This document shows, one piece after another, positions 5,082-43,056 of a stretch of 64,000 nt of DNA. A model generated the notes under the pieces. That model did not search any database, was not told the origin of the DNA, and saw only the letters and a list, made by a program, of their open reading frames with translations. Origin of the DNA: Candidatus Sulfotelmatobacter sp. (GTDB lineage Bacteria; Acidobacteriota; Terriglobia; Terriglobales; Acidobacteriaceae); contig DASYBM010000011.1 in assembly GCA_036500765.1 (NCBI GenBank), positions 186,001-250,000 on the forward strand, given 5' to 3'. Position 1 is the stretch's first letter, and the number at the start of each line of letters is the position of its first letter. The position numbers were made by a program, and so were the translations under genes.

Positions 5082-8000
5082 ATGAATTCGGTCAAAACGG
5101 CTGGCTTGGCCGATATCCCCATCGGTGGGCGAAACGCGGTGCTGTGTGCTTGGCTTTTTCTGGGCATCACTTGCGTGAGTCTATCTGGGCAGGCGCGGGA
5201 GCGATCTTCGGCGGCGCCTCCTGATTTGGCGCGTCAGAACCTGGCGCGCGTTGCGGGCTCGCCGACCCAGTTGATTGGTATCCTTCACAAAGATCCGGGT
5301 TTGATGGTGGAACTGAAGCGCTGGATCGCGCGCGACGCGGGCAATCACGGGCAACTGATTGCAGACTCCGACCTGACCGACGAGGCGATTTTCGATCGCC
5401 TTGCAACCGACGTAGAGTTTCGCTCCGTCGTAACGATTCTGGTGCAAAAATACGGCTATCTGATGCCGGCAATGGATCCCGAGTCGGCTCTCGGCAAAGA
5501 GCAGGAGCTTCTGCTGCAAGAGCGTGTGAAATGGATGGCCCAGCATGAGGAAGAGGACCGCGCCCTGGCTCATCAGGAAGCAGTGAAACAGGCGGGGCGG
5601 GGGTTCGCATGCGATCCTCGCATTAACAATTGCGCGACCCAGAACACGAATTCCGCCGCGCCGCCGCAGCCGGCCGGGCAGCAACCGGAAGGCTCTCAGG
5701 GGCCGGTTCCAGGTCTGCAGACTCTGCCCGTCAATCCGAATGCTCCATATCTTCCACCTCAGCAAACGGCGCCGGCCAGTAACGGAACGGAACTTCTTCG
5801 CACCAGCGGGCAGGATCAGAACTCGCCGGAGTCGCTGGCAACCGGCAACCTTGGGGGAAGTTCTTCCGGGTATACGCCATCGGACGACGGCGGACAGTAC
5901 GGCAGTCTGGCACAGCGTAACGGGCAAAGTGCATCGCAGTCTGGGAGGTTTGGAACCGATGGGAACCCAAGCGTTGACGGATCGCTAGGTGCCGGATCGC
6001 TCAATGGCGGAGCCCAGAATGAAGGTTCATTCAATTCGGATTTTGCCGATCAGCTGAATTCATCACAGTCGAACCCGTTCATGAATGACGGACTCTATCC
6101 CGCCTACGGGAGCACCGCCGCGCCTCGATCCGACGTTCCCGGATACAGTGCGCCAGGAAGCGCGCTGCGAGCGAGGCAGTGGAGCGGTCCGGGCCAACGG
6201 TTGGTGCGCAGTCCAAATCCGTATAGCGACATTCCGTCGCTCTACGACATGTACTTGCAGGCCGCGGCCCATCCGCCGGTGGTGGAACGCTTTGGCATGC
6301 AGGTTTTCGAGAATGGCACTCGCGATTTGCAGATGATCCCCATGGACCTGCCGGCGGGGCCCGATTATGTGGTGGGATCGGGCGATGGAGTTTCGGTGGA
6401 TCTGTGGGGAGCCGTTTCGCGCCGGTTCTATCGCGTGGTCGATCGCGAAGGTAGAATCAGCCTGCCTGAAGTGGGACCCATCATGGTCGCGGGGAAGTCG
6501 CTCGCCGACGTGCAGGAGTCGGTGCAGCGAGTTCTGCGTACGCAGTTCCGCGATGTCTCGGCCGATGTCTCTCTGGCGCGTTTGAGAACGATTCGAGTGT
6601 ATGTAGTGGGAGACGTGCTTCGGGCGGGAGCGTACGATGTGGGCTCGCTGTCGACGCCGCTGAACGCGCTGTTCGCGGCGGGGGGGCCGACCAATCGCGG
6701 TTCGTTGCGGATTGTCAAACACTACCGCGGCAATCAACTGGTGCAGGACGTTGACGTCTACGACCTGCTGCTGCACGGAGTGAAGGGAGATATCCAACGC
6801 CTGGAAAATGGCGACACCGTGATGGTACCGCCGTTGGGGCCGGAAATCACGGTGGAAGGAATGGTGCGGCGCCCCGCCATTTACGAGCAGAAGGACGAGA
6901 AATCGCTGGCGGATGCGATTGCGCTGGCCGGTGGTTTGCTGCCAACCGCGGCGCTGCGGCACATCGAAGTGCAACGACTGGTGGCTCACGAGAAGCAGAC
7001 AATGTTGAGTCTCGACGTTTCGCAGGACGACTCGACCGATGAGGCTACCAAGCGACTCGAGTCATTTCAGATTCAGGACGGGGACAAGATCAGGATCTTC
7101 CCTATCGCTCCGTATACGCAGAATGCAATCTACCTGGAGGGCCACGTCCTCCGCCCTGGGAAATATTCGTTCCACGACGGCATGCGGGTAACCGATCTCA
7201 TCAGTTCCTACAAAGATCTTCTGCCCGAGCCGGCAGTGCAGTATGGCGAGATTATCCGCCTGAGTTCGCCGGATTTCCGTCCGACGGTGCAGAGTTTCAA
7301 TGTGGGTGAGGCGCTGGCCGATCCCGCCAAAGCGCCATTGTTGCAGGCTCTCGACACAGTTCAGATTTTCGGGCGCTATGATTTCGAGAATCCGCCATCC
7401 GTCTCGGTGTTGGGCGATGTGCGCGTTCCAGGAACTTACAGAACTTCGGGAGATATTCATCTTAGCGACGCGATTCATCTGGCCGGCGGGCTGACCCCCG
7501 ATGCGGCGACCATCGATGCCCAGGTGTTTCGCTATTTGCCGGACAGCACGCTGAAAATTCTCAACGTCAAGTTGGACAGCGCGCTGGACGGCAGCCCGGC
7601 CGACAACATTGTCCTGAGCCCGCGGGATCGCGTACTCGTCCACAAGAATGCGGCGGCTAGCGATCCGCCCACGGTATCCGTGAAGGGAGAAGTGGCGCGG
7701 CCGGGACGCTACCCGTTGACCGGGGAGATGCGGATATCGGATGTGATTCGCGCCGCCGGCGGTCTGAAGCAGAGTGCCGATATTCAAACCGCGGATCTTA
7801 CTCACTATGTTTGGAACGACGCCAAACAGGTGACGGCGAATCAGGAAGTGATCACGCTCGCGGATGCGCTCCACGGCGAACCGGAGAAGGATCCTGCGCT
7901 CAACAACGGCGATGTGCTTTCTATTCGGCAACGGCCAGGCTGGGAGGACCTGGGCGCTTCGGTCACGATTCGTGGAGAAGTTGTGCACGCCGGCAGCTAT

Positions 8001-38610: not shown

Positions 38611-39291
38611 ATGACTACCGCGACTGAAACGAATACAATTCCCCGCATTAACGACACGGCTCCCGACTTCACCGCCGAAACCACGCAGGGCACGATTCAC
38701 TTTCACGACTGGATGGGCGACGGCTGGGCGATTTTATTTTCTCATCCCAAAGACTTTACCCCGGTCTGCACCACCGAACTTGGATACATGGCAAAGTTGC
38801 AGCCGGAATTTGCCAAGCGCAACGTGAAGATCATTGGCCTGAGCGTCGATCCTGTCACCAACCACAGCAAGTGGGCTGCCGATATTGAAGAGACACAGGG
38901 TGCGAAGGTGAATTATCCAATGATCGGCGATCCGCAGTTGAAGATCGCAAAGCTTTACGGCATGCTGCCCGCCGAGGCCGGCGAAACCTGCGAAGGCCGC
39001 ACTCCCGCCGATAATGCAACGGTGCGCACAGTTTTTGTGGTCGGGCCGGACAAGAAAATCAAGCTGCAACTCAGCTATCCCATGACGACGGGGCGGAATT
39101 TCGACGAAATCCTGCGGGTGATCGACTCCATGCAGCTCACGGCGAAACACAAAGTGGCGACGCCAGTGAACTGGAAGCCGGGCGACGACGTGATCATTAC
39201 CGGCGCAGTTTCCAACGAAGAGGCGCAGCAGAAATTTCCGGGCTTCAAGACGGTGAAGCCGTATTTGCGAACGACGGCGCAGCCGAAGTAG
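38611..39291 (+). CDS. 1-Cys peroxiredoxin (Prx6 type)
   Basis: A 226-residue cytoplasmic peroxidase. The catalytic region HPKDFTPVCTTELGYMAKL places the peroxidatic Cys at 53, and the downstream VDPVTNHSKWAADIEE and the long C-terminal extension (VATPVNWKPGDDVIITGAVS) are typical of the Prx6 group. The ATG at 38611 has AAGGAG nine bases upstream. It is followed 106 bases later by selC; the protein itself uses Cys, with no in-frame TGA. Confidence 0.95.
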   Translation: MTTATETNTIPRINDTAPDFTAETTQGTIHFHDWMGDGWAILFSHPKDFTPVCTTELGYMAKLQPEFAKRNVKIIGLSVDPVTNHSKWAADIEETQGAKVNYPMIGDPQLKIAKLYGMLPAEAGETCEGRTPADNATVRTVFVVGPDKKIKLQLSYPMTTGRNFDEILRVIDSMQLTAKHKVATPVNWKPGDDVIITGAVSNEEAQQKFPGFKTVKPYLRTTAQPK

Positions 39292-39396: not shown

Positions 39397-39494
39397 GGAA
39401 GCGCATGCGGTCCGGTGATCGTCCCGGTCTTCAAAACCGGCGGGCGGCGGGTTCCCCCGTCACCGGTGGGTTCGACCCCCACTCGCTTCCGCCA
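39397..39494 (+). tRNA. selC: selenocysteine tRNA (anticodon TCA)
   Basis: The acceptor GGAAGCG (39397-39403) pairs with CGCTTCC (39484-39490), followed by G-CCA. The anticodon stem CCGGT/ACCGG encloses the loop CTTCAAA with TCA. A long variable arm follows (about 39443-39465), and the T-arm is GTGGG-TTCGACC-CCCAC. The total of 98 bases and the long extra arm fit tRNA-Sec. The eighth acceptor base pair is mismatched (C-T). Its presence implies the organism decodes UGA as selenocysteine. The 3' end is duplicated at 41562-41593. Confidence 0.95.
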
Positions 39495-39499
39495 ATTTT
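39468..39499 (+). repeat. attL-like direct repeat: 3' end of selC
   Basis: These 32 bases run from the T-arm through CCA and five bases beyond (ATTTT). They are identical to 41562-41593. Identity ends on both sides immediately (T versus C before; A versus T after). This is the pattern left by tyrosine-recombinase integration at a tRNA 3' end. Confidence 0.9.
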
Positions 39500-39780
39500 A
39501 GTTTCACCCTTTCGGGTCGTTCGTCGTTCTCGGGTGCGCCACCCGCCCTGAATAGTCTCCGGCTTGCGGACTATCACTTATTGAATGTGTTCCTGCCGGA
39601 ACACATCGTCATGACGGGGAAGGGTGTACGCTTGTGTCATGACAGCTAAGACTAAGAAAGCAAAGCGGCGGGAGGGCAGCCCGGTCCGGGAAAGGTCCCC
39701 TGGCTGGGGACAGAGGGACGTTCACCAAACTGTGTTGGGCGAAAACGGGTGAACGTCCCGTCAGATGTCCCTTTTTTTCA

Positions 39781-40122
39781 AATCCCATGATACAAGCAGC
39801 ATCAGACCCGCCCTTGCGAAAGCGCAAGGACGGGGCACCCACAGTTCTGGAACTATACGCAAGGTCAAGAACTGAAGGGATGGGCCACCCGCCTCGCGGT
39901 GCTTTGTTGTGGCGATTACACCGCCGATTCATGGGCCTGATTGTGATGGGATTGGCGGGCGTTTTGCGGTGCCGATTGCCGGCACGGAAGCGCGGCGATG
40001 CGGGCGTGGGGCGGGTGGCCCGGCCTTGTCCTTTTGATTTAGCGTCCGGCTCCAGAACTGTGGGTGCCCCGCTCTTGCGTTTTTTGCAAGGGCGGGTAGG
40101 ATGCTGCTTGTACCATGAGATT
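39781..40122. repeat. 342-bp element with 113-bp imperfect inverted ends
   Basis: The left arm 39781-39893 and the right arm 40010-40122 are imperfect reverse complements. The best-matched core, GGGGCACCCACAGTTCTGGA (from 39832) is mirrored exactly near 40050. Each arm also contains its own hairpin (CCTTGCG-AAA-CGCAAGG type). The central 116 bases carry no gene. It resembles a MITE or a head-to-head pair of a dispersed repeat. Confidence 0.8.
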
Positions 40123-40192
40123 CCCAGCCGAGTCAAATTCGGCGCTGTCGGCAGCACCGCCACCCACCCTCGCACAGGACGCGAGGATGGGG

Positions 40193-40284
40193 CACCCGCT
40201 GTGTTGGTATCGGCGACATCAAAGGCTGGGCCACCCGTCACCCGCTGTGTTGGTATCGGCGACATCAAAGGCTGGGCCACCCGT
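40193..40284 (+). repeat. two perfect tandem copies of a 46-bp unit
   Basis: 40193-40238 and 40239-40284 are identical. The unit, with the preceding GGGG, follows the same outline (GGGGCACCC, then GGGCCACCCG about 40 bases later) as the arms of the inverted element at 39781-40122, so it is probably a diverged, duplicated member of the same family. Confidence 0.9.
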
Positions 40285-40286
40285 CC

Positions 40287-40580
40287 CAGACTGGAAGCCC
40301 AAGTGCGGGTGTCGATAATGCATCCGGCGGCCCGACTGGGAATGTGATCGGTATCAACTACAACAGTTTCATAACGACGTATCCAAATTTTGGAGGACCC
40401 AACGGCCAAGTGAGCATGATGTTTCATGAACTGGATCATAATTATGAGGGAACAAGTGGACCGGACAGCGGTAGGGTAGACAATATGGCGCATGCGGCTC
40501 AGATAGAGAATGATTGTACGTATCCGCAGGTCGCGACTCAGACCTCGACGGGGCCAGACCAGATTCCTAGCTCTCAATGA
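40287..40580 (+). pseudogene. C-terminal fragment of a HExxH metalloprotease-like protein
   Basis: The frame runs in from the tandem repeat and ends at 40580 with no plausible start of its own (a GTG at 40344 is in frame). It encodes VIGINYNSFITTYPNFGG, then MMFHELDHNYEG, where HELDH fits the zinc-protease pattern HExxH. Such tails occur at the C-terminus of polymorphic-toxin and RHS-like proteins, among others; which family it came from is not decidable. The N-terminal part is lost and replaced by repeats. Confidence 0.5.
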
Positions 40581-40612
40581 GAATGATAGAAGAGATTCCA
40601 CCGGAAGGGAGG

Positions 40613-41170
40613 ATGCGAAACGTGAACCTACCAATCGTACTCTTACCAGTGCTTCTACTCTTTTCTGCCGAAACAAACATCCAGCCAGCGATCGCGAACT
40701 TGGAACTGCAGTCGCTGAAAGCTGAGTATCGAGCGGGAGAGAAGATTCAGGTCGAATATAAAATTCAAAACGTTGGCGGCGCCCCTTTCTATATGAATCC
40801 GAATGTCGCTCAAGTTGGCGGCATGGATGCGGGCGTTCGGTTGGCGCTCTTCGATGAAGCTGGGAATCCCGTTTCGGGACAGATTGTTGGAGATGTACCC
40901 GTTCCTGATTATTCGAAAGTTCCGGATCTCTGCGCCTACATCCGAGAGCGATGGCTCTTGCTGAGGCCAGGAATGTTCTACGGACTAAACACGTATTATC
41001 CTACAATTGTGACCCTAAGACCTGGACGATATCGGCTCTTGGCCACCTACTTCAACAACCTGCCGAGTCTGGTAACACCTGCGCAAAGAGAATCCATGGA
41101 TTCCCTGCCCTATCCGGTACTCGTGAAGGAACTTCAATCGAGGGATGTCTGGTTTACGGTCGTAAAATGA
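40613..41170 (+). CDS. small secreted protein of unknown function
   Basis: A 185-residue product starting at the ATG at 40613, with GGAAGG upstream (a GTG at 40622 is also possible). The signal peptide reads NLPIVLLPVLLLFSAETN. The mature part starts LELQSLKAEYRAGEKIQVEYKIQNVGG, an Ig-like beta-sandwich pattern typical of exported acidobacterial proteins, and ends in RPGRYRLLATY and DVWFTVVK strands. No catalytic motif is apparent. It is the only apparently intact gene inside the selC island and follows the protease fragment by 32 bases. Confidence 0.65.
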   Translation: MRNVNLPIVLLPVLLLFSAETNIQPAIANLELQSLKAEYRAGEKIQVEYKIQNVGGAPFYMNPNVAQVGGMDAGVRLALFDEAGNPVSGQIVGDVPVPDYSKVPDLCAYIRERWLLLRPGMFYGLNTYYPTIVTLRPGRYRLLATYFNNLPSLVTPAQRESMDSLPYPVLVKELQSRDVWFTVVK

Positions 41171-41561
41171 TGGTTGACAACAGTGGGGACAATCAGAATC
41201 CGCCGCGTGTGCTGGTTGGCGCTGGGATTGACAATAATATGGACAACCCTAAGCGAGCGGTTCGGCCCAGGCTCGGCGTCGTCCGAATGTGATCCGGCAC
41301 CTCGGGTCCGATTTAATCAAACTAAGCGGCTCAACAGGCCAGTTCAGGACCCTCCATGCCTTGCAGGAAAGTTCGCGCGGAAAAAAATCACCGGCTATGC
41401 CCGACCAATCATGTTTGCGAGGAATCCGACCCAACACTTGGGACCTTGAGCGGGAATCTGGTCTGCGATCCTTCGCAATCCGTTAGCTGGTTTGGTGACG
41501 CCTTTAATGTCCTACGTTGCCATCCGTGGCCTTGCATGTTGTTGAATTTACGTTTCTGAGC

Positions 41562-41593
41562 GGGTTCGACCCCCACTCGCTTCCGCCAATTTT
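41562..41593 (+). repeat. attR-like direct repeat: displaced 3' end of selC
   Basis: Exact copy of 39468-39499, without the 5' part of a tRNA upstream. It marks the far end of the inserted element. Confidence 0.9.
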
Positions 41594-41796
41594 TCGCAGG
41601 CCTCCTTCAGCAATTCTTCCGACACTTCCCAACAACACATAGTCCGGCTGTGGCGTGCTGTCCGGTAGTGGACATTGGGTTCCAGCAACGGACACTGGAC
41701 CTGGCACCCGTAAACATGACTTCAGGCGTATCTCCCAATGCTTCAGGCACTTAGATCTTTCCGCCATCTGGAAGACTGGGTGCCACTGCGTTACTG
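41594..41796. other. upstream region of the efflux operon
   Basis: No gene. It holds the two dyads at 41659-41694. A candidate sigma-54 type pair (GG at 41770, GC at 41782, ten bases between) lies very near the adaptor start and is weak; no firm promoter is called. Confidence 0.4.
41659..41694. promoter_or_regulatory. paired dyads, candidate operator of the efflux operon
   Basis: TGTCC-GGTAGT-GGACA (41659-41674) is a perfect inverted repeat. GTTCC-AGCAAC-GGACA (41679-41694) repeats it with two changes, offset by 20 bases, about two helical turns. They lie 103 bases before the adaptor ATG. The locus ends with its own NtrC-type regulator, a plausible binder; this link is inference. Confidence 0.5.
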
Positions 41797-43056
41797 ATGG
41801 ATATCGCACGCCCAGAGTTCAAGCGCCAGAAACTGCGCCGCCAGATTATCGGCGGAGTGGTCGCCGCCGCGGCGGTTGCGGTATTGATCCTGGTTATTCT
41901 GCGACTCAAGCCGGCTGCGCCTTCGGTGGAGCGCGGGACCGTCTGGACCGACACGGTGAAGCATGGGTCGATGCTGCGGCAGGTGCATGGGCCGGGGTCG
42001 CTGGTCCCGACGCAGGAAGCGGTTCGGCAGATTCCGGCCGAGACCGAAGCGACCGTTGTGCGCATTCGCATGTTGCCGGGGTCGCAGGTGAAGGCGGACG
42101 CGATCCTTCTGGAAATGAGCAATCCTCAGGTGGAGCAGGCGGCGGTGGACGCGCGCCTGCAATTCCAAGCGACGCAGGCGGAGTATCAAAGCTTGAAGGT
42201 GAAGCTCGAAAGCGATCTGATGACGCAGCGAGCCGGCGCCGCGACCGTGAGCGCCGACTATGGGCAGGCGTCGCGTCAGGCGGAAACGGATAAGGCGCTG
42301 TATGACCTGGGAGTGATTTCAGGGCTGGCTTACAAGGCGTCGAAGGGGAAAGCGGACGAACTGACGCTCAGGAACGATCTGGAAAATCAGCGGCTGGCGA
42401 TCAACAAGAAGGCCATCGAAACGCAACTGGCGCAGGAACAGGCGAAGGTGGATGAGGCTCGGACGCTGGCTGAGCTGAAGCAGAAGCAACTCGATGCGTT
42501 GAAAGTCCGCGCCGGCATCGACGGTGTGCTGGTGGATCTCCCGTTGCAGGTTGGGCAGCATGTTCAGCCCGGAGTCATGCTCGCGAAAGTGGTGCAGCCC
42601 GATCACCTGATGGCGGCATTGAAGATTGCCGAGACGCAGGCGCGCGACGTGCAGTTGGGTGAGCCGGCGGCGATCGACACCCACAACGGCATTATCGGCG
42701 GGACGGTCATGCGGGTGGATCCGGCGGTACAAAACGGAACCGTAACCGTGGACGTCAAACTTACCAGCGAAATGCCCAAGGGCGCGCGGCCCGATTTGAG
42801 CGTGGACGGCACGATCGACCTGGAGCGCCTGGACAATGTTCTCTATGTGGGGCGACCGGCATTCGGACAGGAGAACAGCACGATCAGTTTGTTCAAGCTG
42901 GATTCCGATGGCAAAGAGGCGACACGAGTGCCGGTAAAAGTTGGACGCGAGTCGGTGAATTCGATTCAGGTTTACGAAGGGCTGCATGAAGGCGACACCG
43001 TCATTCTTTCCGACATGTCACGCTGGGACAAGACCGACCGCATACGGCTCGAATAA
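41797..43056 (+). CDS. efflux periplasmic adaptor (HlyD/MacA family)
   Basis: A 419-residue membrane-fusion protein bridging an inner-membrane transporter and a TolC-type channel. It has one N-terminal membrane anchor (IIGGVVAAAAVAVLILVIL, residues 17-35), a first lipoyl half (IPAETEATVVRIRMLPGSQVKADAILLEM), a long coiled-coil hairpin (about 110-235), the second lipoyl half (VRAGIDGVLVDLPLQVGQHVQPG) and beta-barrel and membrane-proximal domains to the end. It leads an operon with ATPase, permease and TolC-like genes, so it most likely serves an ABC-type tripartite pump. Confidence 0.9.
   Translation: MDIARPEFKRQKLRRQIIGGVVAAAAVAVLILVILRLKPAAPSVERGTVWTDTVKHGSMLRQVHGPGSLVPTQEAVRQIPAETEATVVRIRMLPGSQVKADAILLEMSNPQVEQAAVDARLQFQATQAEYQSLKVKLESDLMTQRAGAATVSADYGQASRQAETDKALYDLGVISGLAYKASKGKADELTLRNDLENQRLAINKKAIETQLAQEQAKVDEARTLAELKQKQLDALKVRAGIDGVLVDLPLQVGQHVQPGVMLAKVVQPDHLMAALKIAETQARDVQLGEPAAIDTHNGIIGGTVMRVDPAVQNGTVTVDVKLTSEMPKGARPDLSVDGTIDLERLDNVLYVGRPAFGQENSTISLFKLDSDGKEATRVPVKVGRESVNSIQVYEGLHEGDTVILSDMSRWDKTDRIRLE

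What the first reader, a model, noticed from the sequence alone, without database searches (positions are those of the whole stretch)
39397..41593. selC-integrated remnant island with intact 32-bp att duplication
selC is identifiable by its TCA anticodon and long variable arm. Its last 27 bases plus five more are repeated exactly 2.1 kb downstream, with identity ending abruptly on both sides. selC is a known integration site for islands in enterobacteria; the same logic seems to hold here in a distant phylum. No integrase remains, and the cargo is down to one intact gene and debris.
Basis: partly seen in the sequence, partly recalled or inferred. Interest (0 to 1): 0.72.

Follow-up and report, generated by a model that had tools for sequence, protein, structure and literature searches.

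The report
Remnant genomic island in selC gene
A soil acidobacterium carries the worn-down right end of a mobile DNA island that once inserted into its selenocysteine tRNA gene; complete relatives with an integrase gene sit in that and other tRNA genes of related bacteria and share a conserved end sequence of about 100 bases.

Summary
The 107 bp just inside the right copy is a conserved element terminus. It recurs twice more in this genome, beside tRNA-Ser(GCT) and tRNA-Lys(CTT) fragments, and in 17 of 45 genus genomes; 25 of 30 inspected copies (18 of 22 not used to build the model) run into a tRNA-like tail. Complete int-bearing relatives exist: at selC, 9.1 kb (G190) and 12.5 kb (G038); at tRNA-Lys in this genome, 8.6 kb. 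One 3.6-kb selC form keeps an integrase stub. The integrases that share an element with the terminus fall in one clade, and short repeats in the two element ends tend to co-vary. The window copy lacks the left arm, the integrase and most cargo: a fossil that probably cannot excise. No simple empty site was found. Ordinary in kind, but an apparently undescribed element family with a useful end signature.

The parts
38611..39291 (+). 1-Cys peroxiredoxin gene, upstream chromosomal flank; a similar gene lies near selC in part of the family
   Evidence: Pfam AhpC-TSA 7.4e-32 and 1-cysPrx_C; blastn hits in 27 of the 82 selC locus records searched, two of them one place
39397..39494 (+). selC, tRNA-Sec(TCA), taken as restored by the integrated element
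   Evidence: ARAGORN, Rfam RF01852 64.8 bits
39468..39499 (+). left attachment-site copy (attL core): T arm to CCA of selC plus ATTTT; T-loop TTCGA at 39471-39475
   Evidence: 32/32 direct repeat
39500..40343 (.). repeat-rich debris where the left arm and integrase would be; inverted repeats 39781-40122 and a 46-bp tandem duplication 40193-40284, partly of kinds dispersed in the genus
   Evidence: no integrase found; no left-arm repeat
40344..40580 (+). 78-aa frame (open frame of 153 aa ending at 40580) with an HELDH (HExxH) motif; guessed to be the C-terminal stub of a larger cargo protein, possibly RHS-type
   Evidence: no Pfam or NCBIfam match; no match at E <= 0.001 in 199 other family genomes; the RHS link is inference from position only
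40577..41170 (+). 197-aa ORF with a signal-peptide-like start (judged by eye), the one intact cargo gene
   Evidence: weak homologues (24-31% identity) in 6 of 199 other family genomes; no Pfam or NCBIfam match
41461..41567 (+). conserved element terminus (right, P-type arm) with repeats at 41465-41471, 41475-41487 and 41519-41531 that look like integrase arm sites
   Evidence: 99.8 bits with model R1, the only match in the window (the window copy is one of the 8 that built R1); alignment A1, 83% mean column identity over 8 copies
41562..41593 (+). right attachment-site copy (attR core); T-loop TTCGA at 41565-41569
   Evidence: 32/32 direct repeat
41797..43056 (+). HlyD-type membrane fusion gene, first gene of the downstream flank (hlyD-ABC-permease)
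   Evidence: Pfam HlyD_D23 6.8e-12; on the selC contig in G166 too

Best explanation
The 2.1 kb is the decayed right end of an integrative element that entered selC by tyrosine-recombinase recombination in the T arm of the tRNA gene. The element's attachment site carried its own copy of the selC 3' end, so insertion restored selC and left the displaced native 3' end at 41562-41593. Shown here: the duplication; the family-specific terminus ending at the right copy; complete relatives at selC and at tRNA-Lys, -Ser and -Val with the integrase frame 12-47 bp from the tRNA and facing it. Inferred: crossover in or near the T-loop TTCGA; the short repeats in the two arms as the integrase's arm sites; loss of the left arm, the integrase and most cargo by later deletion, which fixed the remnant in place.
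For: Exact 32-bp duplication, unique in the genome. Terminus 41461-41567 matches model R1 at 99.8 bits and occurs twice more in the same genome beside tRNA-Ser and tRNA-Lys tails. In the genus, 25 of the 30 termini held as loci (33 matches in all) are followed by TTCRA with CCA at a tRNA offset, 18 of 22 when the 8 copies that built the model are left out; background 44 of 531 TTCRA sites in the same loci. Of ten two-ended elements found, 5 have a full-length integrase beside the tRNA (L168, L238, L243, L283, L284), 1 has a 67-aa stub (L080/L289) and 4 have none (window, L167, L169, L234). The six integrases that share an element with a terminus (five on one contig, G147 by genome only) fall in one clade, support 95/96 for 9 rows and 97/97 with a tRNA-Glu-linked row. 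Repeats in the two arms are more alike within than between 9 elements, permutation p 0.0013, and 0.013 without G147 and G054.
Against: No empty site with 39499 joined to 41594 was found; G166 has about 7.2 kb of other genes there. The left arm expected next to selC is absent in the window (score 7, null mean 8.0), so the left boundary rests on the repeat alone. In one search an element's own partner arm is the best match in only 4 of 9 rows, G190's own pair scores lowest of nearly its whole row, and G054 was given a longer right arm (230 against 130 nt). Integrases lying just outside a terminus (L167, L170, L228, L236) fall outside the clade, and the tree tool warns of long branches among them. 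L234 has a truncated tRNA tail. 5 of the 30 genus termini lack a recognisable tail.
Confidence: 0.92

Rival explanations
1. It is a non-autonomous mini-island, still mobile in trans: the two cores and one arm are kept and a related integrase, such as the one at tRNA-Lys in the same genome, moves it.
For: Four int-less two-ended forms of 0.6-2.1 kb were found, two of them in this genome; a clade integrase is present in the same genome; the 32-bp cores are identical.
Against: None of the 4 int-less forms has a left arm that matches its right arm beyond shuffled sequence at the 5% level (window 0.945, L167 0.735, L169 0.07, L234 0.825), while 4 of 5 int-bearing forms and the stub form do; the fifth, G190, does not (0.41). 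In the listed matches the window interval shares only dispersed repeats and the terminus with the places of L167 and L169; the other int-less forms were not compared with each other.
Confidence: 0.05
2. The second copy is a local partial duplication of selC with no element behind it, like the 121-155 bp tandem tail copies seen in other genera.
For: Extra selC 3'-end copies 121-155 bp downstream occur in L052, L061, L071, L088, L089 and L097.
Against: Spacing here is 2094 bp, identity stops abruptly on both sides, and the DNA inside the right copy is a terminus also found at Ser and Lys tRNA fragments.
Confidence: 0.02
3. The interval is a composite: the terminus is from one element and the left part from a second insertion or rearrangement at the same hotspot, so the 2.1 kb is not one decayed element. 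This overlaps with the best explanation, since the right end would still be an island remnant.
For: Relatives carry several elements, tails or termini at one tRNA (L170, L266, two termini in L080); the left part of the window interval matches dispersed repeats.
Against: No second attachment core or second terminus was found inside the interval.
Confidence: 0.15

Closest known systems
tDNA-integrated genomic islands as collected in Islander (PMC4383910; passages seen by term search)
   Same: tRNA gene plus displaced 3' fragment in the same orientation marks the ends; tyrosine integrase inside the complete relatives; targets are said to switch often during integrase evolution
   Different: the window copy has no integrase and would fail Islander's integrase filter; forms under 2 kb would fail its length filter; the ends here can be found by a conserved terminus instead
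selC islands of enterobacteria (recalled; PMC7545054 seen only as a search listing)
   Same: same target gene, 3' end duplicated
   Different: other phylum; integrases group with Lys-, Ser- and Val-targeting relatives from the same bacterial family; RHS or unknown cargo in place of virulence genes. No direct comparison with enterobacterial integrases was run
T-loop class of tRNA integration sites (Williams 2002, seen only as a reference, and crossover subsites in a table note, in PMC4383910; otherwise recalled)
   Same: the shared block starts in the T arm and runs to the 3' end
   Different: one conserved element terminus is found beside Sec, Ser, Lys, Asn and Val tails within one bacterial family

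Membership tests
tRNA-integrated genomic island | tRNA gene and a 3' fragment of it in the same orientation at the two ends | tested here: met
tRNA-integrated genomic island | tyrosine integrase inside | tested here: not met
   none found in the window interval; present in relatives with the same terminus, so this is called a remnant, not a complete island
tRNA-integrated genomic island | interval absent from the same locus in relatives | tested here: met
   no blastn hit of the interval in the selC loci; listed genus matches are repeats and the terminus only (capped list)
tRNA-integrated genomic island | precise empty site in a close relative | tested here: inconclusive
   29 of 45 genus genomes have one core match, but no direct join was found; G166 has about 7.2 kb of other DNA
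R1-terminus element family defined here | terminus of about 107 bp abutting a tRNA T-arm-to-CCA tail | tested here: met
   99.8 bits, tail is selC; the window copy helped build the model
R1-terminus element family defined here | left arm with matching short repeats and an integrase facing the tRNA | tested here: not met
   neither found in the window; the window is a remnant of the family on its right end only
RHS-bearing subset | RHS/YD-repeat gene upstream of the terminus | tested here: inconclusive
   RHS in L168 and L283 and in L170; the window frame ending at 40580 sits in that place but showed no RHS similarity

The most novel reading that the evidence does not exclude
One acidobacterial integrase clade keeps a conserved attachment-site arm while the tRNA tail next to it changes, because crossover lies in the T-loop TTCGA common to nearly all tRNAs; this lets the same element family colonise selC, Ser, Lys, Asn and Val genes, and its int-less short forms may still be moved in trans by resident relatives.
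Probability: 0.15. Interest if true: 0.6.

Novelty: new member of a known kind. Interest (0 to 1): 0.42.

Why it matters
It shows that selC serves as an integration site in Acidobacteriota as it does (recalled) in enterobacteria. It also yields a terminus signature that marks island ends, including small and int-less ones that integrase-based island finders reject, and offers a natural series of one integrase clade with changing tRNA targets for studying how target specificity shifts.

Tried and rejected
A strict catalytic-motif search for integrases in selC loci gave 1 spurious hit; it was too strict, and an HMM seeded from four integrases located by Pfam found many. Reading the matches at 41459-41560 as a transposon end was given up once the copies proved to run into tRNA tails. 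L246 and L241 first looked like complete elements at tRNA-Glu and tRNA-Ser, but the tail at the terminus does not match that tRNA, so they were dropped from the count of ten. Immunity-gene reading of the 197-aa ORF: no RHS gene was detected in the loci of about 3 kb or less that hold its homologues, so it is not claimed. The two Dyadobacter pattern hits have no tRNA tail and are taken as chance or coding sequence. The phylum-wide model search scored only 9 candidates per genome and found 4 of 396 genomes, the window's own among them, all in the window's family; it surely undercounts. Papers: only passages found by term search were seen in PMC4383910, PMC3414803 and PMC3174227; all others were seen as search listings with starts of abstracts. 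Searches that listed no paper on this element family: in a library that lacks most subscription journals. No structure was predicted.

Full report
OBSERVATION. selC lies at 39397-39494. Its last 27 bases plus ATTTT are repeated exactly at 41562-41593, and the identity ends there on both sides. In the whole 5.04-Mb assembly the 27-nt part, allowing 3 mismatches, occurs at these two places only. Nothing between the copies matched an integrase: of 6 ORFs of the interval given to Pfam, 5 had no match up to E = 1 and the sixth only a sub-threshold match to an unrelated family; tblastn with related integrases gave nothing better than E 0.67 in the part of the output printed.

HOST. Two genomes of the window's genus group, G172 and G185, have contigs whose lengths equal those of records titled Candidatus Sulfotelmatobacter, which NCBI places in Acidobacteriota, Terriglobia, Terriglobales, Candidatus Korobacteraceae. 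SelB is encoded in the window's genome.

THE selC NEIGHBOURHOOD IN RELATIVES. selC loci were taken from family genomes: 81 distinct loci at first, the window's included, 112 after the genus was added. A peroxiredoxin gene like the window's gave blastn hits in 27 of 82 locus records (two of them one place); the window's hlyD gene and the stretch 41594-41796 gave none there, and its ABC and permease genes only short partial ones. In the genus, G166 keeps both flanks (prx-selC ... hlyD-ABC-permease) but has about 7.2 kb of other genes between them and a single copy of the core. So the downstream side of selC varies, and no clean empty site was found. Of 108 selC loci with at least 300 bp of downstream DNA, 13 have an integrase-like ORF starting within 1 kb; 10 of the 13 face the tRNA, most of them within 50 bp of it, and three weaker hits (L054, L142, L182) point the other way.

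THE TERMINUS. The interval itself has few relatives. Its repeat-rich part matches dispersed repeats, but the last 100 bp before the right core match places elsewhere at up to 90% identity (capped list). The places examined showed the same arrangement: the conserved stretch running into a 3' tRNA fragment that starts in the T arm (in L170 the fragment is truncated). In the window's own genome these are a tRNA-Ser(GCT) fragment (L167) and a tRNA-Lys(CTT) fragment (L168). Eight copies align with 83% mean column identity. A sequence-only model of them (R1) finds 33 matches in 17 of 45 genus genomes. Of the 30 held as loci, 25 are followed by a tRNA-like tail (18 of the 22 that did not build the model), against a background of 44 of 531 TTCRA sites; the five without are L202, L218, L224, L214 and L222. 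By best tail match the tRNAs include Sec, Ser, Lys and Asn; Val is shown by L243. A degenerate pattern found 34 loci in the collection of 84,980 species genomes, 32 in Acidobacteriota and 2 in Dyadobacter without a tRNA tail, and one in the viral collection; 26 of these 35 sites have CCA at the offset of an ordinary tRNA and 2 more have a selC tail. In a phylum-wide but insensitive search, 4 of 396 genomes matched, the window's own included, all in the window's family.

COMPLETE RELATIVES AND A DECAY SERIES. Ten elements were found with both a tRNA gene and a matching tail at a terminus. Five carry a full-length tyrosine integrase frame 12-47 bp from the tRNA and facing it: tRNA-Lys in the window's genome (8.6 kb, L168), tRNA-Ser(CGA) (8.1 kb, L238), tRNA-Val (5.0 kb, L243), and selC twice (9.1 kb in L283 of G190, whose kinship the tool does not tell but whose record is titled Acidobacteriaceae; 12.5 kb in L284 of G038, same family). 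Pfam PF00589 confirms three of the five (L168, L238, L283); L243 and L284 rest on the local HMM. Their termini score from 103 bits (L168) down to 22 bits (L243) with R1. One selC form of 3.6 kb keeps only a 67-aa integrase stub 14 bp from selC (L080/L289). Four have no integrase: the window (2.1 kb), L167 (0.9 kb), L169 (1.3 kb) and L234 (0.6 kb, with a truncated tail). Three more selC cases are split over contigs (G147/G191, G009 and, with a weak terminus of 15.9 bits, G028). L168 and L283 carry an RHS-repeat gene, and so does L170, which is not among the ten.

MECHANISM. The integrases that share an element with the terminus (five on one contig, G147 by genome only) fall in one clade, 95/96 for nine rows and 97/97 with a tRNA-Glu-linked row; it holds Sec, Lys, Ser and Val targets, and three further selC integrases without a demonstrated terminus. 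Integrases that lie just outside a terminus (L167, L170, L228, L236) fall elsewhere; some forks are open and the tool warns of long branches. Short repeats near the tRNA and in the terminus tend to be alike within an element: summed match 112 against a permutation mean of 88, p 0.0013 for 9 elements, and p 0.013 after leaving out G147 and G054. Against this, an element's own partner is the best match in only 4 of 9 rows, and G190's own pair is weak. Integrase arm sites at both ends would show such a pattern. Within single elements, 4 of 5 int-bearing forms and the stub form have matching arms, G190 does not reach significance, and none of the 4 int-less forms does (L169 comes nearest, 0.07). 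The window copy has therefore probably lost the partner arm as well as the enzyme and should be unable to excise. Crossover in or near the T-loop is inferred from where the shared blocks begin.

CARGO. The 197-aa ORF has weak homologues in 6 of 199 other family genomes and no named family. The 78-aa frame with an HExxH motif has no match in 199 other family genomes. Placing it as the stub of an RHS-type protein rests only on its position before the terminus. GC content of the interval, 0.51-0.58 in 500-bp steps, is unremarkable.

JUDGEMENT. It is a remnant of an integrative element of an apparently undescribed acidobacterial family: the searches listed no paper on it, in a library that lacks most subscription journals. 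Target switching and T-loop integration are known in general (PMC4383910, passages), hence a new member of a known kind.

Noticed in passing
L052, L061, L071, L088, L089, L097 (selC loci of other genera): Extra selC 3'-end copies 121-155 bp downstream of selC; in L052 and L017/L097 the unit is a small repeat ending in CTCAAG directly before TTCGA, as if a tiny non-coding unit also sits at the T-loop.
   Followed up: partly
L180 (G167:C1086): Two selC genes about 12 kb apart with identical 3' parts, one followed by an integrase fragment.
   Followed up: no
L179 (G160:C279), 10537 and 11543: A second selC 3' copy 1.0 kb downstream whose inner flank does not match the R1 terminus: perhaps another island type at selC.
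   Followed up: no
L183, L184, L185: selC-like tails preceded by a different conserved flank (about 100 bp alike in three genomes, ending in CTTCGCCCG), perhaps the terminus of a second selC-targeting element family.
   Followed up: no
L167:5606-9765: Next to the int-less tRNA-Ser remnant in the window's genome lies another integrase, outside the R1-linked clade, followed by an ORF that looks by eye like a DNA methyltransferase and further ORFs; probably a second island at the same tRNA.
   Followed up: no
window 39781-40284: Inverted and tandem repeats of a type found at many places in the genus, also next to tRNA-Ser in L167.
   Followed up: partly
L282 (IMGVR_UViG_3300048046_000027), 6582-6617: One contig in the viral collection carries the terminus followed by a tRNA-Asn-like tail.
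   Followed up: no
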